A stretch of 12,661 bases of DNA, taken from Heterostelium multicystogenum. Taxonomy: Eukaryota; Evosea; Eumycetozoa; Acytosteliales; Acytosteliaceae. Of this stretch, positions 513 through 12,661 are shown in pieces. How positions within the stretch are numbered: the first letter of the stretch is position 1; every line of letters starts with the position of its first letter. Under the pieces are notes generated by a model. It searched no databases and was not told the origin of the DNA. It saw only the letters and a program-made list of their open reading frames with translations. Position numbers and translations under genes: made by a program. Where the stretch lies: assembly GCA_003667245.1 (NCBI GenBank), contig RCNN01000515.1, positions 1 to 12,661 of the forward strand, written 5' to 3'.

Positions 513-1614
513 TTCAATTTAATTGACATCAAAAGAGAAGCATCCTCTCTTTCAAAGCTTCTGAAGTGTAAAATCCTAGACTACACGATTGGAAACAGCT
601 TGGTGATAGAGGATGTATTTGAAAAAAAACCATATAAAACAAATATAACCTTTCCTAATTCAAATATTGTTAACTATTCACTGGTCAGCAAAGAATGGTT
701 CAACTATATATCTAAATATCATTGTACGCATTTCATGGTCTCCACAGTGGAAAGAAAACTGCAATACTATGGTCTAAATTACTTCTCTAATGTGATCAAT
801 ATGCATTCAAATCATTCACTGTTTCAATTCAAAAACATTGCACATCTATTCTACTGCGAAAATAAGAGTGTCTTCAATTCCGATGATACCTTTGACTTGA
901 TATCAAAGTTTAACATCGATGGCAATCTTCAACTATTACAAATAGCAACCACTAGAGATGATCTACTGAGGAAATTGGTTGCCTCTCTCAAAAATGTGAA
1001 GATTCATCTTTACCTTGACAAGAAAATCTCAGATTTTTCATTCGGGAAATGTATCAATTGACGATATCAATGAAACAGTGCTTTAAAAAGTCCAACTAAG
1101 TATTATTTCTTATTTAAAATTTTCCAGAATCAAACAGTGGAGAGTGACCACGTTCACGTTGACTTTACTCCTCACAGAGATATTCTCAGCTTTTTCAAAC
1201 TTAAAACACTCAAATAAATCAAAATCTTCAAGGAATATGACTTTGTTGATATAAAAGATCTACACTTGGCTGTCAATGATCATATCCAAAATATTAAAGT
1301 GTTCAGTACAGATTCAATGTCTTGGAAATCAATCGAAGATATCAAAAATAGTAATGACTATAGAAGTGATGGTGATGATGATGATAATTTCACACTAAAT
1401 AATAGTCCTATTCAGCATTGGTCAGAATTCTGTGACGCACTATCAACAAGATTTGAAAGTGAGTCCACCAAGGCGAGGTCGGACACAATATAGATATGAA
1501 GATGATAAAGCTCGAAGTCCATCAGTAATACAATTTATTAGCAACATTAACAACAACCAAACTCTATCCATGATATTATTAGAGAAAATAAAAGTTGAAA
1601 AAGTATCATCTTGA
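513..1614 (+). pseudogene. F-box / leucine-rich-like protein, broken
   Basis: The frame is open from 513 and has no good ATG. It begins with a helix like an F-box start (SLSKLLKCKILDYTI, 546-590) and then has YSLVSKEWFNYISKY (about 675-720), the LVSKxW pattern typical of dictyostelid F-box proteins that act as substrate adaptors of SCF ubiquitin ligases. The frame shifts near 1044 to a piece reading GNVSIDDINET. An intron at 1078-1127 then restores the frame into QTVESDHVHVDFTPHRDIL. A TAA at 1215-1217 interrupts an otherwise continuous frame that resumes with IKIFKEYDFVDIKDLHLAV and runs to 1493. Near 1460-1480 the frame changes again, and the last open piece (FISNINNNQTL, leucine-rich-like) stops at 1614. 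A missing start, two shifts and a nonsense codon point to a pseudogene. Assembly indels could explain the shifts but not easily the TAA. Family assignment is by pattern only. Confidence 0.5.
1078..1127 (+). other. putative intron in the F-box-like relic
   Basis: It starts GTGCTT, carries a branch-like CCAACTAAG, a pyrimidine-rich stretch, and ends TTTTCCAG. Removing these 50 bases joins INET to NQTVES in phase. Confidence 0.45.
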
Positions 1615-2433
1615 TATAGTCGATGACTTGGGTGGGTAGATCTTAATAAAAATATCTTTTTAAGAAAGTCATCTTAAGTCAAAAATACTATCAAGGTGTG
1701 ATTTCAAATGTGGGAGATGTGTAAATTTAGACTAAACACAAAGAAATTCATCTATTATAGCCCCAATAATATTGCACATGCTGTTTACAGAATATACCTA
1801 GCTCCAAATTAATTCTAGAATCGGTTACAAACAAATAATAAATATGAAAATTATCTTATTATTACCAATCTATTTTATTGTTCTTGTTATTGATCTTTTG
1901 TTTAATTCACTTCAAAAATTGGTGACCGAAGTTTTTCCTCTATAAACTGTGATGGAATCTAGTCGATAATCTAAATATCAACCCAAAGTTGTTTAAGTAA
2001 ACATGTTGCATAGAACACTGCACACAAAAATATCTTGAAAAACACTCGTTTCAAGCCAAACACAAACCTAAAGTTTTGGTTACGAGTTCGATCCAATCAA
2101 AATGCTGATGCATCAACAAAATCCAGACTAAGTTTTAAAAAAATTGATCACCCAATAACTTGTTGTGTCCCTACTAAATGAATTGGGGCAAGCGATGTGG
2201 TAACCTTAGGCGACAAACTATGACTGCTGAAAGATTCTGACTGGGTATCAAGAATAAATTTAAGTAACAATATTCACATAATCTAAAATCTAAGAACCGT
2301 TGAGGTTGATGATCAAAAGTTGACTAAGATCAACTTTATTTAGATCATACTTGTTGTTGTATCAAATTGTTTATTATAATTATAATAATAGTTATAATAT
2401 AGATATAGACACATAGATTTTTCTCAGTGGAAA
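1615..2433. other. gene-free spacer upstream of the large gene
   Basis: All frames have many stops and no motif was recognised on either strand. A GAGTTCGATCC at 2084-2094 resembles a tRNA B box but has no tRNA around it. A perfect 8-bp hairpin lies at 2316-2337. From about 2370 the sequence becomes almost pure A/T, as is usual for dictyostelid promoters, leading to the ATG at 2434. Confidence 0.55.
2370..2433 (+). promoter_or_regulatory. probable promoter and 5' leader of the IPT/DNase II gene
   Basis: A tract made almost only of A and T, including TTATAATATAGATATAG-like sequence, ends shortly before the ATG at 2434, which is preceded by AAA as is typical in dictyostelids. No specific factor site was recognised. 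Confidence 0.4.
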
Positions 2434-2525
2434 ATGATTACATCACAAACACTGCATTCTATAGCTATACTAATCGTATTGGTTATCGTCAATGCAGTGG
2501 CCGTGATCAATGCGATTCAAATAGA
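2434..2525 (+). other. signal peptide of the IPT/DNase II protein
   Basis: The first codons read M-I-T-S-Q-T-L-H, then a run of I, A, L and V (AILIVLVIVNAVAVINA), then a polar segment (IQIDQ). This is a standard eukaryotic secretory leader of about 30 residues with small residues near the end for cleavage. The frame stays open to a TGA at 2584-2586; the mature protein continues in the next frame after LYGVLF, with SDFAFLFGPHYYY. Confidence 0.75.
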
Positions 2526-5500
2526 CCAAATGTCTCTCCTTAGAGGATACGAAGAAGGTGGTAACTTGTATGGAGTTCTGTTCTGATTTTGCATTTTTGT
2601 TTGGACCACATTATTATTATAAACGATTTTCAAAAGATACTAATCTTAATTTCAATTTTGTTTCACACACAAGTTTTGTGATTGTCGGAGGTGACTTTCC
2701 AAGCATACCTGTATTGTCTGTGGTTGTTGGCTCCAGTGCACCAGCCATCTTTTCATTCTTTATTAATACAGGTAATGAATATGTTTGGATTGTTCCGCCT
2801 GCACCTTTGGATAGTAGCTCTAAGAAGCGTAAGTTTGGTTCCTCCTCTGCAACCTTCTATATCCATTTCGATGTAAATGCAGCTCCTTACTTTAGCGGAG
2901 ATTTTGAATATGTTCAACCCGTGATCGATAGCTTCTCTCCAAAGGCTCACTATCCCAGTCCCAATGGAAGAACCATGAAAATCATTGGCCACAACTTAAT
3001 CATCAATGAAAAGGATGTAGCTCCCTGGTCGAGCTTGTTCGTCATGATAACGTGGCCCATACTCTCACGGTTACCAGCACCAAGGCAAATGAACTTGTAG
3101 CTATATTACCAACTATTGATCCAGCAGACTTGGGTGGATATACGTTAAGATTGACCTTTTACGGTAGATTCTCCATCACTGCTTCCTCAAACTTTGACTA
3201 TGTTTTACCGGTTGTCACTGATGTCAGACCAAATCGTGGAGTATCCGGAGCTTCACACACTATTGTGCTGAGTGGAAATCATCTCTACGATAATGTAGGC
3301 TTACCCTTATCGACAATTACAATTGGAAGCCAACCATGCACCGATGTTCAAGTGGATTCAGATACAGGTGATCTCAGCTGTCAAACACCTTCAGTCGAGC
3401 TCGATATCGGTCAAATTAACGAACAGAACATTGCATTAACGATCGATATTCAACAAGCATTCTGTGATAAAATATTTATATACTACCGTAGGTTCCACAC
3501 AGCAGTTAGGTGAGGACTACTTAGTCGAAAGTACATTACTAATAACATTTATTGTCAACAGATCCTATAATTCTTAGTATAGAACCAAAAAGTGGACCTA
3601 CCCATTGGTGGAACAGTAGTTGTTGTTTCCGGACAATATTTGATGGATGTTAGTGCCGCTTCAATTGGTGGTGTTGAATGTGTTATTGATAGGACCTCGA
3701 TTTCACCTGATAGCTTTAGGTGTACAACTGGTCCATTCGATATGGTTGACGAAAGTGGTTATACACATAACTTGATTGCTACTATTGGAGGCACTCAATA
3801 TAGTTCTCCAGAGACCGAGAAGTTTACTTACTATGAGCCCAAGATCAATTCAATTGGACCCAGCAAGATCATTGACAAGGCCAAATGGGTGGTTACGATC
3901 CTAGGAAGCGGATTTTACCAAAACAACAAGGTGAAGATTGGAGATCAAGAGTATTCTCCATCCATAGGTTCAACTGATAGCTACCTGTTTATAGAAGTTG
4001 ATGCCAGTAAGTTCTCAGTCGGTGTTTTTAATCTGCTTGTCAATTCGGATGGAGTTGACTCCAATATTGTTCTATTTGAAGTAGCCAAACCTCTGATCAC
4101 TGCTGTCGAGCCAGCACTTGGATATCTCTTCTCTGAAACTAAGGTAACTTTGTACATCCAAGATTTCCCGCTTGGATTGACTCAAGATGAAATAGAAGAT
4201 CATATTATTGTGAAAATTAAGGACAAAGAATGCATAGGAGTTGCACAGCTTGATGATACGAAGCTGATATGTACTGTTCCACCAGGCGATGTAGCACAAC
4301 AGAGGACATATCGTTCTCTATCAAGAAAGTGTAGACTATACATCAACTGTAAAGTTCACTTATTTTGAACCAAAAGTAACCACACAATCTCAAACTACTA
4401 CCATTCCAAAGGGTGGAGGAAAATCTCGTCATTGATGGAGCCAACCTGGATGTAGTCTCCACAATAAAATTGGATGGCCAAAACATAGATATTTCCACCT
4501 GTATTATCCAAGTGGCACAAATCACCTGTACGATTCCAGCCCACACACCAGGAAACTTCCCCATTTTGTTGGTCGTAGTGGATTCAGAATACGAAGAGCA
4601 TCAATACAATACTGGTACGGACATCAACTACGTCGGTCCAACCATCACCGAAATCGTACCAAAACAAGCTTCAAAGAAACATCCAACCACTATCACAATT
4701 AAAGGAGCAGGCTTTGGAAATACACCTGGTTTGATTACGGCCACTGTTGGAACCAATGCGTGTACCAATATCGTTATTCTACAAAACGATGCTAAGATAG
4801 AATGTGATATTCCAGCACTTCAGGAAGCGACCTATGATGTGGAGGTGCAAGTTAAGCCCTCGGCAACACAGCCAGCAGTTGCCTCGATGGACAAGATAAT
4901 TTTGCCTCTCAAACCTTATCTTGTCTGGCACCTGTAGCTGATGGTGAAAAGACAAGCAAAGCAGTAGACTGGTGGTTCGTCTACAAGCTCAAACATGGCA
5001 ACAATCCATATCTCTATATGGACTCGACAATGGATAATCTTGAAAGAATGGAGAACTTACAAAATCATGGTACAACCAAATATAGTGCCGTTGAAGCGAC
5101 ATTCCTCCAGTACAAAGATTACTACCATTTATTCTTTAATGATCAGCCTGATACAAGAACAGATCAAGGAAAGAGAGGTAAATCAGGCAGGATCAATTGG
5201 TGCACATGGACACTTGAAAGGTAGCTATGAAATAAGAAATCCTCCGAGCAAACAAAAATTGTAACTAACAACTGTACAACTTTCAAGGTATGATATTTTG
5301 GGATGACCCCGATCCAGTGACCTCGCATGTTCACGGTATACACATGGGTAAGCATCATCTTCAGCTAGTTGAATATTAGTTAGTTATCTATATACTAAAT
5401 CAAGAAATTCAGTACATTCCAATCCAGCATTTCCAGCATATCAAAAGAAAAAGGTTCTGATATCAATGACCCAAGCACAGGAATAAAATTCTTAGGTGCA

Positions 5501-8500
5501 GCCGACTTCAATCAGCATTTCTTTTGCTATTCTTTCAATCATCTCGACGAGGTGGCACGCTACATATCTTTCAATGATGGAAATCTACTAGCAAGAGAAG
5601 GTTATTCCCTAATATGAATACGAGACAAAATGAATTTCCATACCTCTATGACTACCTAACTCAACACCTTAGCTACACGCGTCGTACCCGGGAACTGGGC
5701 CTCCCGTAAAAACACCCAGGATTTGATGGACGATTGCCAAGCTGTCATTGACTCACAAGTCGCACTCGAGAATATATGTTGGTGGAAAACACCTTCGATT
5801 ACCATCGCCAATGGAAAGCTCAATGCTTACTACTACATGAAGATTGGAACAAGTTTCACCACAAAAAATAGTCCCTTCCCAAGTGCGCTTCTTCCTCATC
5901 CTGCCACACTGAGTCCATATATCTTACCTAAACAGGGAACGGCCGTCTATGATGGTATTGATCTATGGATGGTTGTTGCCGATCATCTACAAAAGAAGAT
6001 GTTTGTTGAAATGTTCTACGCGATAAGAATGAAACAAATGCGTCCCACTGAGCAAGTATTAAATATAGGATATCTTGAACTTGTACCAAATCTTGTACTC
6101 AAGACACCAATAGCAACTGGTGGATATGAATATAATGATAAACTATACTCTGGAAGAAAAGAGTGACCATGCCAAATTGGGAGTTCCTATGTACCCAGCA
6201 TACGATGCAAATGCATTGAATCCCAACGAGAATTACTTTTGTATTGGTGACAGCAACAGACATAATGGGCAAGGTGGCAGAGGAGGTGGTGTCATATGTA
6301 TCCAGCATCCCACATTGGTTTATCAGTTCAACAGAATGGTTAGAGACTATAATACATACACTACAGCTGGTTTACTTACCAATCCATCAGACAGCAATAC
6401 CATTGAGCTATTTACCTCTGTGGTCCAGCCAATCAAAGTTAGTAGACCAGTAACTTGGGCTAATCCCATTCAAATTGAAGTCAAAGATTACATAAATAGT
6501 GTTCATATCACCAAATCCCCGCCAGAACTCTACGAGGTAAAAGCCTCAACCATGCAGATCCACATGATGTACTCGCTGAGTTCAAAGCATTGAGAAATTC
6601 CAAAACCCACACTGCTAGTGCAGCGGGTGAGTCTACTTCTGTCACAGGTGCAGTTACGATGCCAGCTACAGAGCCAGATATTATTAATTACGTCTCCACC
6701 GACATCATGACCCTCCATTACCATGCCTTCGATAATCTCATTGGAGCAATTTGTGCATACGACGCAGCGATTACCAGCTGCGAAAGAAAAAGCTCGGGTC
6801 ACGGAAATTGAACATGATGTGCCACTTGGCTATACTGTACCAGACTTCCCAGCAGCATTCCCACCATCATATGGAGATGTACAAGCACTGAGGACCTATA
6901 ATCTTAATGTCAATAAGGACTTCATGCTACTGCAATATGTATCTGAATTTATGACAATGCTCCCCAATGCCAAAAGAAAAACCTATCAGTTTATGGTTGA
7001 CAATGGAGGTACCATTTTATCGGCACGCTTCCAGCCTCCTTTTATCATTCGTTTGACTGATGATTTGTGTAAAGAAGAAATTGCATACTTTATGACACTT
7101 CACTACATCTACTATCAAGGCGGTGCCCCAGCAGAGGATACTCTCCTCTACAGCATAGGTCCAAACACTCCAAACTGGGCAAATGGAATCATTTTAGCTA
7201 TTTCCAAGAAGCTTTATAATGTAACTCTAATATACATCAACTTAACATTATGTTGTTTCACTCTATTAATATATGCTTCATTATCACTTATAGAGCTTAT
7301 ATCTTGGTAAAGATGCATCCTTTGAAGATTGTTTCGGTGAGGTATTTGAGGATTTCCTTAATATTGAAGATTATTCAGAGTAACTATATTGAACATTGTC
7401 ATATGGAAACTTTTACAGTATGCTTAATATTAACTTTAACATCCCTTCAATAGTGATAAATCAATGGACAGTCCAAGCAACGATGTGATGACAAGAAGAT
7501 CAGCCGTAGCTGCTTGGGATTGGATGAGTATTACTTATTCAGATGGATTAGGTTCAAGACTGAATAGACTCGACAATTCAGATATAATTCCAGTTGAATA
7601 TTTAATCAAGCTATTTGTAAAGACTCGTCGAAATAGCGGTGTGAACTCGATGGAGGACTTTGCACGTCTTGTGAATAAGAAATACAAGACTGAGACTAAC
7701 TTTAAGAATATTCTCATCAATAACTTTATAAAAACCACCTGCTCCAAAAAAAAAGTGGATCCATATGGCAATGTTATTCTGATGAAAATCGGATCGAATG
7801 ATAACTTCCAATCAAGGCTTCTGCAAACAGTAGAACAATCAATTACTGCAACTCGAAAACTTTTCCAAAATGAGCGACCACTTGATACTGGTATTAAACT
7901 TCTTAGTTCATTTATGCTAAACAATGAATGAAACTAGCATGGCCTCACTCACACCATACGAACAAGAAAAGTTGGAGAAAGCTCTCGACAAATGGATAAC
8001 TATTTACAACATGAACCAAGCAATCAAGGTATTAGTATTGGACCCAATCAACGATATCTATCATCAGCCCATCAAGTATATTGATGATATCAATCGTGAC
8101 ATGACTGGATATCAAATTGACATTGGTGTTGAACCAATCCCCAATTCAAGGAGAAAAAGATACACTCTTCTGTCACCCCCTTCCATTGTCTCTATAACTT
8201 ATGTCCTTGAGAGTAGCATGGCCAGCAGTGTTGCAAGTAAGAAATCATTCGGTGACTTTGAGGTATATTATATTCCAAGTCCCTATGGATTCGAAGATCG
8301 AATCCCTGATGGTGGTGGTATGATGATAACCACAATCAACTCTAAAATATGTGACATTTATTTGACTGCATATGTAATTTTCTACTATGGACCCTATACC
8401 TCCACATGCAAAGAAGTTGGACCCATCATTACCTCAGTTGATACTCTACATGGACAGACAGACGGTGGAAATATGATCACCCTAAATGGAATTAGATTCA

Positions 8501-9719
8501 CCTCTACCATGTCCATTGCAATTGGTGACTCTGCATGTCAAACTACCAAATTGGTCTCTTCTTCAACTAAATTGGCTTGTAAAATTCCTAAAGGAACAGG
8601 AAAGAATAACCTCATCCAAATATTCAATGACCAAACCATCTTCAACATCCAAAGAACTAAATTCTATTACTCATATGACGCGCCATCGATTTCAGATATT
8701 ACACCAAAAATATTGAGAGTTTTGGAAGTGATATTTTAACCATTACTGGATCCAACTTTGGTGATAGTGCCAGCAAGGTTAAGGTACTTATTGATGGAAG
8801 GTTGGAGTGCTCACCTATCATTGGAATTTCATCCACTTCTATTGCATGCTTAACACCATCTGCTATCGGTGATCATAGATCTATCACAGTCTTTGTCGAT
8901 GGTCAATCATCAAGCTACACAATCGAAACTGTTGAGTCACAATCAATCGATTTCAGTGGTTTGCAAATCAATGCTTTTTCTCCAGGCTCTGGTGACCCCA
9001 GTGATGTAATTGTCGTGCTTGGTAATGGATTTGGTAATGCTGAAGATACCGATTTACCACCACTTCTTTATATCGGTGACAATCTAGTTGAGATTAGCAA
9101 CTTCACCAATGAAGAAATTACTTTTACCTTAGAATACGAGACCTTAACACAACCATTGAAGATTCAAGCTGGTGATCAGTCAGTTGAAGGTGAATTTACC
9201 TACCTTCCCCAGTGGTATCTCTTTTCAACAATACATTGATTAAAACCACTGGAGGATTGATTCAAATATATGGTTATGGTTTAGGTTTCTCTTAGTCAAA
9301 TCGACTTTACTTTGGAATCTACCGAAATAGATTGTAATTCTTTTGATTACTTTATCGAATGCTATATCCCACCAGGAATTGGTGCCAATCTTAATATTAC
9401 TGCTGCCATCTCTGGTCAAACCATTGATCTTGGACACGACTCAATTTCCTATATGCTACCAAGAATCGAATTCTTCGAAAAAATCACTGAAAATCTACTC
9501 CGATTCCATGGTTCCAACTTTGTTCCTATTGAACTTGATGTTTCATTCGACCCCGACACCACATATGTCAACTTTAAGTATGGTAACCACATAGAAAAAT
9601 GTGATCCAACTTTCAAAAGTAGTACCATCTTTGAGTGCTACATCAATTCTATGCCCAACACTGCCCAGATTTTTGTTGGTGGACAATCATCAAACTTTCT
9701 TAATTTGCGCATACAATGA
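2434..9719 (+). CDS. secreted IPT/TIG-repeat protein with an embedded DNase II domain (split gene, many frame changes)
   Basis: Order of parts: signal peptide (2434 to about 2525), N-terminal E-set-like region, about seven IPT-like repeats to about 4905, a DNase II-family nuclease (about 4916-6345), about 650 unrecognised residues (to about 8400), five more IPT-like repeats, and TGA at 9717-9719. Five introns are supported by phase and branch sequence: 3510-3561, 5221-5287, 5348-5412, 7221-7293 and 7380-7453. Spliced length is near 6.95 kb, about 2,300 residues. The ATG at 2434 was chosen because it opens a hydrophobic leader. The reading needs single-base frame changes near 2582, 3026, 3446, 3604, 4304, 4416, 4912, 5186, 5452, 5602, 5660, 6150, 6538, 6790, 7928, 8707, 9209 and 9287. 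No nonsense codon was noticed between them. IPT repeats in amoeba surface proteins commonly serve binding or recognition; DNase II cuts DNA in acidic compartments. A secreted or lysosomal DNA-degrading, adhesive protein is inference. A recent pseudogene is the main alternative to sequence error. Confidence 0.72.
2582..4905 (+). other. N-terminal region and about seven IPT/TIG-like repeats
   Basis: After an N-terminal E-set-like stretch (SHTSFVIVGGDFPSIPVLSV), repeats start near 2915, 3205, 3564, 3838, 4090, 4372 and 4640. Each opens with a proline-marked strand such as PVVTDVRPNRGVSGA, IILSIEPKSGP or TITEIVPKQASK. Each continues with a glycine motif (VLSGNHL, VVSGQYL, TILGSGF, TIKGAGFG), then an x-IG-x-x-C strand and a C-x-x-P strand (LSCQTP, LICTVP, ITCTIP, IECDIP), and ends FTYYEP, FTYFEP or INYVGP. 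This is the established IPT/TIG (immunoglobulin-like) pattern. Paired cysteines within repeats fit an extracellular protein. Frame changes are needed near 3026, 3446, 3604, 4304 and 4416. Confidence 0.78.
3510..3561 (+). other. intron 1 of the IPT/DNase II gene
   Basis: GTGAGG at the donor, ACTAATAAC branch-like sequence, GTCAACAG at the acceptor, 52 bases. It joins GSTQQL to (D)PIILSIEPKSG in phase. Read-through followed by a frame change is a weaker alternative. Confidence 0.55.
5221..5287 (+). other. intron 2, splitting the first catalytic motif
   Basis: GTAGCT donor, GTAACTAACAAC branch-like sequence, CTTTCAAG acceptor, 67 bases. Removal joins AAAG to GTATG and gives HLKGMIFWDD, exactly the DNase II motif, which makes this intron very well supported. 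Confidence 0.85.
5348..5412 (+). other. intron 3 of the IPT/DNase II gene
   Basis: GTAAGC donor, TATACTAAATC branch-like sequence, AAATTCAG acceptor, 65 bases. Removal joins GIHM to VHSNPAFP in phase, matching the DNase II pattern. Confidence 0.82.
7221..7293 (+). other. intron 4 of the IPT/DNase II gene
   Basis: GTAACT donor after AAT, CAACTTAAC branch-like sequence, ACTTATAG acceptor, 73 bases, phase 0. It joins KKLYN to SLYLGKDASFEDC, which stays open in the right frame. Confidence 0.75.
7380..7453 (+). other. intron 5 of the IPT/DNase II gene
   Basis: GTAACT donor, ATTAACTTTAAC branch-like sequence, CTTCAATAG acceptor, 74 bases. It joins IEDYS to DDKSMDSPSND in phase. Confidence 0.75.
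8401..9719 (+). other. five C-terminal IPT/TIG-like repeats, no membrane anchor
   Basis: Repeats start near 8417 (GPIITSVDTLHGQTDGG), 8690 (SISDITPKNIESFG after adding back one base in an A run), 8960 (INAFSPGSGD), 9209 (PVVSLFNNTLIKTTGG) and 9463 (LPRIEFFEKIT). They show the same glycine motif (TLNGIRF, TITGSNFGD, VVLGNGFGN, QIYGYGLG, RFHGSNF) and cysteine strands (LACKIP, IACLTP, FECYI). The last repeat ends at LNLRIQ and TGA. No hydrophobic C-terminal segment follows, unlike membrane-bound amoeba IPT proteins, so the product should be soluble. Frame changes near 8707, 9209 and 9287. Confidence 0.75.
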
Positions 9720-9725
9720 TTAATC

Positions 9726-9740
9726 AATAAAATCAATAAA
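9726..9740 (+). terminator. two overlapping-range AATAAA poly(A) signals
   Basis: AATAAA occurs at 9726-9731 and 9735-9740, just after the TGA at 9717-9719. This fits the 3' end of the large gene and supports 9719 as its true stop. Confidence 0.6.
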
Positions 9741-10060
9741 AGCTAACGACACCAACCTGCTTGGACAATAACTTTTTCTATTTCATAACCGTCATATCAA
9801 CTGATGATTATGATGATAATTGGATATATGCAAAGAAATATATATTTAATAAAAATTTGTATGTTTCAATAGTTTGAATTTCTGTTAATAAAAATCCCAA
9901 TGTTCTCAGATTGGAATATGTTGCAAATATAACAATGCTAAAACTGTTACAGAATTCAACAACAACTTCATCATGATAAAATATACTTGATGTTTAAATA
10001 TTATAACGGTTATCAATTTGAATTTGAATTAGAAATAAAAAATACAAGCTAATTTGAATT

Positions 10061-10093
10061 ATATATAAACTCTTACCCTTATATATAAACTCT
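10061..10093 (+). repeat. 20-base-spaced direct repeat of ATATATAAACTCT
   Basis: The 13-mer ATATATAAACTCT occurs at 10061-10073 and again at 10081-10093. A third TATATATAAA core lies at 10176-10185. All sit 30-155 bases upstream of the ATG at 10214 and could be TATA elements of that gene. The spacer between the two copies contains CTTACCCTTA. Confidence 0.45.
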
Positions 10094-10344
10094 AACTTTT
10101 TTTCTTTTCAATTTATTTGTTAGTTTTGTTATTTATTCACATAGTTTTCAGTTATATTTATTAATTTTTAACCTCTATATATAAATTTTATTACTCTATC
10201 CTTTTGTTTAAATATGTCTCAACAATTATATCAACAAACATCTCAGTTGAATATACAACAATTCTTACAAAGCAAATTTACACTAACACAACTACAATCC
10301 TCATTTGAAGCTATTGATAAGCATTTCGTTTTGTTAGGAATCTT

Positions 10345-10681
10345 GTAAAATTAAATAGTTAATCAATGAATCAAAATATTCTATTGTTATGGTGGATTCT
10401 TATTGTTACACACTCACAAAGATGCTCTTGGTCTTTGTAGGTTCAGGTGTTTAAGCCACTGTGATTCCAGTCGGACTCCACCTCCGCGTGGTTGGCACCG
10501 GGAAACTCCATGAACATCAAAGTTTGCCGAACTTGATGTTCATGGTGGCTAAGAGAGTCCTTCAATTTTATAATCTTTGCATCACTCACACACTGTTTTG
10601 TAGATCACCAGATCAAATAATATTGTTCAAATAATTTTCATTTTTTTTTCTTTGCGTTCTCATCGACGAATATGATGTCAG
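10345..10681 (+). other. long putative first intron of the subtelomeric gene
   Basis: GTAAAA donor, T-rich tract (10641-10651), GATGTCAG acceptor, 337 bases. Exon phases agree (TT + T), giving GI-F-LNNS. It is several times longer than the other introns in the window because it contains the GC-richer segment at about 10430-10560. An in-frame upstream extension of exon 2 exists for a few codons, so the acceptor is not certain. Confidence 0.45.
10473..10560 (+). ncRNA. candidate structured RNA element (three-stem fold)
   Basis: The segment is clearly richer in G+C than its surroundings. An outer stem pairs GGACTC (10473-10478) with GAGTCC (10555-10560). The first inner hairpin pairs CCG-GTG (10484-10490, one bulged C) with CAC-CGG (10496-10501) around GTTGG. 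The second is a perfect 13-bp stem, CCATGAACATCAA (10508-10520) with TTGATGTTCATGG (10533-10545), extended by GTT/AAC around loop TGCCG. This three-way-junction shape suggests a folded RNA or a small mobile repeat. I could not match it to tRNA, 5S, SRP, snRNA or class I RNA. Function unknown. Confidence 0.4.
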
Positions 10682-11129
10682 TCTTAACAATTCAATTCGT
10701 GTCAAGCAATCTCTGGCCACATCCCTCTCGACTCAACAATTAACAATTTTACAGATTGAGAACAGCTTCAAAGAGTACTTCAGTCAACTCAAGTCAGCAT
10801 GCTATAAGACCAACACTATCGCATTCATCACTGGTGTCACACTTCTTGCAATGTCCGATTTCACATCTGTATTCGACATCACAACCGATTTGACTCTTGA
10901 GCCAAAGTACTCATCGATCTATGGCAATACAGACACTCATGTCAGGGATGCACTCGATCACATCGTTCCACCACTTCAAGAGACCACAAGGTCATCGATT
11001 CTCGATCACTTGAAAAGTGAAAACAAAGGATATAAGTTCAACAAGGATCAACCAGTTGCTCTCTATAATGCAGCAAAGGTCTCTTACTCTCTTCGACGAC
11101 TTCAGCTGTATAGATCTAGAGCTGAGGAG

Positions 11130-11176
11130 GTAGGTTATGATGTTTTTCATCAATCTACTCCTTAACACCTTCTTAG
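11130..11176 (+). other. second intron of the subtelomeric gene
   Basis: GTAGGT donor after GAG, CCTTAACACC branch-like sequence, CTTCTTAG acceptor, 47 bases, phase 0. It joins RSRAEE to DPIGLLQEIS. Confidence 0.7.
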
Positions 11177-12091: not shown

Positions 12092-12518
12092 ATGACTAGT
12101 TAGGTCATCGTTCTTGTTGGACTGACAAGATTGATCATCATTCAGCACTAGGCTCTTAATGGTTAAGCACATTCAGGTCATTCGTCTTAATTCAGGATTC
12201 AGGTGGACTCATTGATTGGTTTTTTGCTCTCAGGTTCAATTAGTTTGGTGGATGATGATTCTTTGTTTTCTAGTTTAACATCAGACAACAAACAGGACTG
12301 ATAAGTGGTGGAATTTAACTCAATTCAATGTAGTTACAGTTTATCAAGTATATGATGGAGGATTTAATAGAGTTTTGGACTCAGATGATTTGGATCAGTG
12401 TCTTCATTAATAGATAGATATATTATTAGGTCAACAGGTTGTTTTAGGTTTAAATAAAGTGGATTTAGTTTAATTAAAAAATATCTATGTAAAAGCATTT
12501 TCCCGCAAGCGTACCCGA
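12092..12518. other. C-poor subtelomeric region with coding remnants
   Basis: No intact gene is present. The frame of the preceding gene continues in pieces between stops, for example FRIQVDSLIGFLLSGSIS and LVDDDSLFSSLTSDN (12191-12298). A second frame is open for about 41 codons at 12285-12407, with KWWNLTQFNVVTVYQVYDGG. After TAA-TAG at 12408-12413 it continues as IDILLGQQVVLGLNKVDLV to 12470. These look like eroded coding sequence. Hand counts per 60 bases from 12181 give C 10, 8, 5, 5, 2 and G 13, 13, 13, 13, 11. Confidence 0.5.
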
Positions 12519-12661
12519 GGGTAGAGGGTAGAGGGTAGAGGGTAGAGGGTAGAGGGTAGAGGGTAGAGGGTAAGGGTAAGGGTAAGGGTAAGGGTAAGGG
12601 TAAGGGTAAGGGTAAGGGTAAGGGTTAAAGGGTAAGGGTAAGGGTTAAGGGTAAGGGTAAG
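12519..12661 (+). repeat. telomeric repeat array, chromosome end
   Basis: Seven perfect GGGTAGA units (12519-12567) are followed by nine perfect GGGTAA units (12568-12621), then GGGTTAAA, two GGGTAA, GGGTTAA and two GGGTAA to the final base. The G-rich strand runs 5' to 3' off the right edge, the polarity expected of a telomere 3' end. D. discoideum does not have simple telomere repeats, whereas from memory other dictyostelids carry TAAGGG-type repeats. The TTAA variants sit inside the distal part and may be natural variation or sequence error. Confidence 0.88.

What the first reader, a model, noticed from the sequence alone, without database searches (positions are those of the whole stretch)
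2434..9719. DNase II domain embedded between two IPT/TIG repeat arrays in one secreted protein
IPT-like repeats run without a spacer into a complete DNase II domain, then an unknown region, then five more IPT repeats. DNase II is normally a stand-alone enzyme of about 350-400 residues with its own signal peptide; here the only signal peptide is at 2434. I know of no described IPT-DNase II fusion. It could be a secreted, ligand-bound nuclease acting on prey or extracellular DNA, or in self/non-self contact. Those roles are inference.
Basis: partly seen in the sequence, partly recalled or inferred. Interest (0 to 1): 0.78.

Follow-up and report, generated by a model that had tools for sequence, protein, structure and literature searches.

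The report
Adhesive-repeat DNA-cutting protein of social amoebae
A social amoeba carries many copies of a very large secreted-looking protein in which a DNA-cutting enzyme, followed by what may be a dead protease domain, sits between two strings of adhesion-type repeats, an arrangement that exists in protein databases but that we did not find described in papers.

Summary
The fusion is real. The window gene (about 2434-9719, +) encodes: signal peptide (by eye), about 8 IPT repeats, DNase II, a ~620-residue middle region, 5 IPT repeats. This copy's frame is cut by introns and indels, but at 7 paralogous loci IPT runs into DNase II in one open frame, and one whole paralogue (2236 aa, spliced, one frame change) scores TIG 9.9e-80 and DNase_II 3.6e-31. 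The genome holds 25 DNase II loci; 23 have IPT downstream, 13 upstream (lower bounds). Proteins with both domains are deposited for Heterostelium album (12) and Acytostelium subglobosum (2): an old, expanded family, not a one-off; I found no paper describing it. The key histidines are kept in the window's class; a second class (6 loci) lost them. The 'unknown region' has no sequence match; its AlphaFold model resembles thermolysin/M1 peptidases but lacks HExxH: probably a pseudo-peptidase (fold evidence moderate). No domain shows dN/dS above 1; nothing found supports self/non-self. The window copy closely duplicates part of contig C484 and may be broken or badly assembled. Most likely role: secreted, surface-held acid nuclease for prey DNA (inferred, untested).

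The parts
2434..2514 (+). signal peptide (read by eye, no predictor run); similar starts in paralogues L012 and L018
   Evidence: window; paralogues
2515..4920 (+). N-terminal IPT/TIG array, about 8 repeats by motif (6 Pfam stretches at E<=1 in pieces above cut-off, plus one below cut-off); contains an intron near 2560-2681 and frame breaks
4921..6356 (+). DNase II domain (PF03265); first HxK motif GHLKG at 5208-5220, second (DHAK) in the piece 6114-6590; cut by introns and frame breaks
5221..5287 (+). intron inside HLK|G (inferred from GT-AG ends and from paralogue L018)
5348..5412 (+). intron inside GIHM|VHSNPAFP (inferred)
6357..7739 (+). X1: no Pfam match; AlphaFold model of the corresponding stretch of H. 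album P0003 resembles thermolysin/M1 peptidases, without HExxH; introns inferred at 7221-7293 and 7380-7453
7740..8421 (+). X2: linker and small domain before the second IPT array; low model confidence
8422..9719 (+). C-terminal IPT/TIG array, 5 repeats by motif, 3 Pfam stretches at E<=1; stop at 9717-9719; no transmembrane stretch seen by eye

Best explanation
The locus is one copy of an expanded gene family, shared with Heterostelium and Acytostelium (Acytosteliaceae), that encodes secreted proteins of about 2,200 residues: signal peptide, about 8 IPT repeats, DNase II, a probable gluzincin-like pseudo-peptidase domain, 5 IPT repeats. The IPT arrays most likely act as an adhesive stalk that holds an acid, metal-independent nuclease on a surface (prey bacteria, sheath or vacuole wall), so that DNA is cut where prey is bound or digested. 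Shown by computation: architecture, family, conserved catalytic histidines, dN/dS below 1. Inferred: secretion, tethering, substrate, place of action, the peptidase-like nature of X1 and its loss of activity.
Confidence: 0.55

Rival explanations
1. The window copy is redundant or decayed: it repeats most of the end of contig C484 and is either an unpolished duplicate of that stretch or a recent subtelomeric pseudogene. This concerns the copy, not the family.
For: Window 646-10550 matches C484:86000-95900 at 98.96% with 52 gap openings; C484 is 97,992 long, so by arithmetic the window's end would fall near the end of C484; telomere-like array at 12518-12661; dN/dS 0.71-0.84 among the three near-identical copies window, L011, L014; 14 private frame-shifting indels.
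Against: L014 itself has 8 private frame-shifting indels and L018 one in a homopolymer, so error-prone sequence may explain them all. The length of contig C485 and the last 2 kb of C484 were not seen (genome tool did not complete).
Confidence: 0.55
2. Two or more adjacent genes (IPT protein, DNase II, IPT protein) or a chimeric assembly, not a fusion.
For: In the window the IPT and DNase II pieces are in different frames.
Against: One open frame across the junction at 7 paralogous loci and annotated proteins with both domains in two other species.
Confidence: 0.03
3. A structural or adhesive protein in which DNase II is a non-catalytic nucleic-acid- or ligand-binding module.
For: A second class of 6 loci (C40, C59, C237-, C90, C169+, C23-) lacks the first HxK histidine in 6 of 6 and shows no second HxK in the 4 where that stretch could be read; X1 also lacks catalytic residues; DNase II has the highest dN/dS of the domains in the four window-clade pairs tested (0.50-0.65).
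Against: In the window's own class both HxK motifs and the middle histidine are kept in the rows that could be read, except N for H at C291; in the pair L009-L010 DNase II dN/dS is 0.20.
Confidence: 0.25
4. A self/non-self contact system like the tgrB/tgrC IPT proteins.
For: tgrB1, tgrC1 and tgrD1 are listed as IPT/TIG cell adhesion proteins (table in PMC4931340, passages); many copies here.
Against: IPT arrays are constrained between close paralogues: filtered dN/dS 0.15-0.35, lowest in the C-terminal array; no transmembrane segment seen by eye. Allelic data were not available.
Confidence: 0.08

Closest known systems
IPT/TIG domain-containing proteins of Heterostelium album PN500 and Acytostelium subglobosum LB1 (e.g. 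PPL_10555, PPL_02577, SAMD00019534_027680)
   Same: IPT and DNase II in one protein, the middle region, further IPT in those that are complete; most 1.9-2.8 thousand residues; same histidines in the rows without gaps
   Different: 35-65% identity to paralogue L018 over the part aligned, not measured against the window; automatic names; some models incomplete or carrying extra domains; no paper found that describes the fusion
Stand-alone DNase II (PF03265; human DNASE2, 5i3e; C166 in this genome)
   Same: two HxK motifs and a third histidine
   Different: ordinary enzyme is a few hundred residues with its own signal peptide; here it is embedded in a ~2,200-residue protein
Trichinella spiralis DNase II-like family (125 predicted genes; PMC4148230, passages)
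   Same: large lineage-specific expansion; nearly all copies without the C-terminal catalytic motif; about half predicted as excretory-secretory
   Different: no IPT arrays mentioned in the passages read
Gluzincin metallopeptidases (thermolysin M4, M1 aminopeptidases)
   Same: predicted fold of X1
   Different: no HExxH in 12 of 12 sequences; no sequence-level match
tgrB1/tgrC1 IPT proteins of dictyostelids
   Same: IPT/TIG repeats on exposed proteins
   Different: no DNase II and membrane-anchored (both recalled)

Membership tests
DNase II (PF03265) | profile match to N- and C-terminal parts above the curated cut-off | tested here: met
   33.8 and 42.5 bits on two window pieces, cut-off 23; 109 bits in L018
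DNase II (PF03265) | HxK motif in each half plus the middle histidine | tested here: met
   window: GHLKG, DHAKLG, HSNPAFP across an inferred intron (read by eye); family rows
DNase II (PF03265) | acid, metal-independent DNA hydrolysis | not testable with these tools
   needs protein
DNase II (PF03265) | DNase II fold | tested here: inconclusive
   AlphaFold model of DNase II plus X had mean pLDDT 38.9; no usable fold match
IPT/TIG repeat protein (PF01833) | repeats above the curated cut-off on both sides of DNase II | tested here: met
Gluzincin metallopeptidase | thermolysin/M1-like fold | tested here: inconclusive
Gluzincin metallopeptidase | zinc motif HExxH | tested here: not met
   no HExxH and no HxxxH in 12 of 12 sequences, two of them incomplete
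Gluzincin metallopeptidase | sequence-profile similarity | tested here: inconclusive
   no peptidase family among Pfam matches at E<=10 (12 members); no PDB sequence at E<=10
tgr self-recognition proteins | polymorphic IPT region with excess replacement change | tested here: inconclusive
   paralogue dN/dS only, 0.15-0.35 in IPT after filtering; no allele data

The most novel reading that the evidence does not exclude
An amoeban 'digestive rod': a secreted, lineage-expanded family in which an active acid nuclease and a dead metallopeptidase are carried between adhesive IPT stalks, with a parallel pseudo-nuclease branch, used to capture and dismantle prey or extracellular DNA, the peptidase-like domain serving as a binding module for peptide or cell-wall ligands.
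Probability: 0.25. Interest if true: 0.72.

Novelty: new variant of a known kind. Interest (0 to 1): 0.56.

Why it matters
DNase II is usually described as a small lysosomal enzyme. Here it is the core of a giant, secreted-looking protein: by my sorting, 17 loci of the histidine-keeping type and 6 of a histidine-less type in one genome, with relatives in two named genera. PMC8535579 lists 'deoxyribonuclease II activity' among terms enriched in dictyostelid family expansions (passages) and does not, in the passages read, name an architecture; this family is a concrete candidate to explain it and can be tested in H. album.

Tried and rejected
Tried without result: AlphaFold of DNase II plus X together (7 rows, mean pLDDT 38.9) and its Foldseek search (no match at E<=0.001). 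Protein search with a histidine-less class member: none at E<=0.001 among the 7991 candidates scored; this does not show that the class is absent elsewhere. Rfam: no match at the gathering score in the window. NCBIfam: no useful match. The fetch of contig ends and the telomere pattern search did not complete, so contig ends and the length of C485 were not seen.

dN/dS by domain was first run unfiltered (DNase II 0.48-0.83, C-terminal IPT 0.15-0.20 in the pairs with enough codons) and repeated with a filter for misaligned stretches; the filter lowers dN by design. Codons kept: 1637 of 1784, 1688 of 1914, 1628 of 1752, 1407 of 1524, 845 of 1129. L009-L010 departs from the pattern (DNase II 0.20; its IPT 1-3 could not be computed).

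Rejected: adjacent separate genes; chimeric assembly; a one-off fusion.

Literature: nine searches listed no paper that by title or abstract describes an IPT-DNase II fusion; one search listed 20 of 3,137. I read passages of six papers and none whole. The library lacks most subscription journals.

Full report
What is in the window. Pfam scans of stop-to-stop pieces find IPT/TIG repeats in 3010-3510, 3583-4365 and 4380-4934, the two ends of DNase II in 4856-5221 and 6114-6590, and IPT/TIG again in 7921-8736 and 8679-9236, with matches below cut-off at 2525-3097 and at 9285-9716. By repeat motif I count about 8 repeats before and 5 after; Pfam alone gives 6 and 3 stretches at E<=1. A hydrophobic start at 2434 looks like a signal peptide (by eye), and paralogues L012 and L018 start in a similar way.

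The reading frame. The window is not one open frame. Short introns with GT-AG ends interrupt it; in paralogue L018 I placed 8 of them, 51-66 bases. There are also frame-shifting indels: in three core exon stretches of a five-sequence alignment, 14 private to the window, 8 to L014, 9 to L013 (two of these 46 and 130 bases long), 12 to L015, none to L011. The junction from IPT to DNase II is in one open frame at C82, C484, C250, C202, C228, C253 and C100. That settles the fusion.

The family. The genome (29.7 Mb, 528 contigs, unnamed) has 37 DNase II matches, which I grouped into 25 loci; 23 of 25 have an IPT match within 6 kb downstream and 13 of 25 within 5 kb upstream on the same strand (one search scored 150 of 426 IPT candidates, so these are lower bounds). 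Without IPT: C166, with AHSKG, HSTP and DHSKW as in an ordinary DNase II, and C223. I sort the other 23 into 17 of the window's class and 6 of a second class. In the second class (C40, C59, C237-, C90, C169+, C23-) the first HxK histidine is missing in 6 of 6, and no second HxK is seen in the 4 loci where that stretch could be read (C59, C237-, C90, C23-). In the window's class the first motif was read in 13 of 17 (L009-L013, L016-L019, L021+, L022+, L023-, window); in L014, L015, L024 and L025 it was not resolved because the alignment ran into an intron or a broken stretch, and these four are placed by similarity. IPT was found upstream in 11 of the 17; C12, C291, C169-, C237+, C23+ and C489 showed none. 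C291 has Asn instead of the middle histidine.

Other species. A search with the L018 model found 14 proteins with both Pfam domains, 1898-2764 residues: 12 of H. album PN500, 1 of A. subglobosum, 1 unnamed EukProt entry. A profile search, which only considers shorter proteins, found one more, A. subglobosum P0015, 1110 residues, ending inside the middle region. P0002, P0006 and P0008 carry extra domains, perhaps joined gene models. Both named species are in Acytosteliaceae; that the window's genome belongs near them is inferred. In the tree (29 rows) L018 pairs with P0001 and L012 with P0005 at support 1.0, so several members are older than the split from H. album. Window, L011, L014, L015 and L013 form an own-genome group (1.0), and they join P0002 and L025 (1.0), with the order inside unresolved (0.04).

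The window copy. It matches C484:86000-95900 at 98.96% over about 10 kb with 52 gap openings, ends in a telomere-like AGGGTA array, and the three near-identical copies differ with dN/dS 0.71, 0.76 and 0.84 at dS 0.02. The other pairs give 0.17-0.39 (window-L018 could not be computed; pairs with L012 have dS near 2.7, saturated). The window copy is therefore either a poorly polished duplicate or a fresh, possibly dead, copy; the family as a whole is constrained.

Selection by domain. After filtering: DNase II 0.50-0.65 in four pairs of the window clade (upper bootstrap limit 1.02 in one) and 0.20 in L009-L010; X1 0.29-0.37; X2 0.04-0.17; C-terminal IPT 0.15-0.17; N-terminal IPT 0.21-0.35 (repeats 1-3) and 0.27-0.33 (repeats 4-8). 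No computed value exceeds 1. This gives no support to a hypervariable recognition surface, though alleles were not tested. In pairs with L013, dS is 0.12-0.20 in DNase II and X1 but 0.33-0.51 in X2 and C-terminal IPT, which suggests gene conversion among copies (not tested further).

How it may work. In porcine DNase II His297 attacks the phosphate and His115 acts as acid/base, and a cited title names His115, His132 and His297 as crucial (PMC11430429, passages); the equivalents are kept in the window's class. The protein probably enters the secretory path, the IPT arrays hold it to a surface, and the nuclease acts where pH is low, such as the food vacuole or the contact with bacteria. Only the sequence part of this is shown.

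Comparison with the literature. DNase II activity is listed among terms enriched in lineage-specific expansions of dictyostelids (PMC8535579, passages). P. pallidum has the highest IPT/TIG protein count of the five genomes tabulated, 110 against 55 in D. discoideum (PMC4931340, passages). Trichinella shows another DNase II expansion, 125 predicted genes of which one has the C-terminal motif (PMC4148230, passages). None of these passages describes the fusion, and the nine searches listed under Tried and rejected showed no paper that does.

Noticed in passing
window 12518-12661: Array of about 22 AGGGTA units at the window's end: probable telomere, so the locus would be subtelomeric; contig length not seen.
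   Followed up: partly
window 646-10550 and G000:C484:86000-95900 (L014): 10 kb near-duplicate, 98.96% identical with 52 gap openings: redundant contig or recent duplication.
   Followed up: partly
window 10635-11162: Open frame with a match just below cut-off to PF09820 Predicted AAA-ATPase (2e-5, 24.9 bits, cut-off 26.1).
   Followed up: no
window 513-1058: 182-residue open frame without a significant Pfam match, upstream of the fusion gene.
   Followed up: no
L002, L004, L005, L006, L007, L021 minus strand (C40, C59, C237, C90, C169, C23): DNase II-IPT relatives without the first HxK histidine: a likely pseudo-nuclease class; 4 of 6 show no upstream IPT.
   Followed up: partly
L016 (C12:43000-52900): Diverged member whose last open frame (612 aa, open at the locus edge) runs past the IPT repeats into a long non-IPT stretch; A. 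subglobosum P0011 looks similar by eye.
   Followed up: no
L013 versus L011, L014, L015: Synonymous divergence differs two- to fourfold between domains of the same gene pair, suggesting gene conversion among copies.
   Followed up: no
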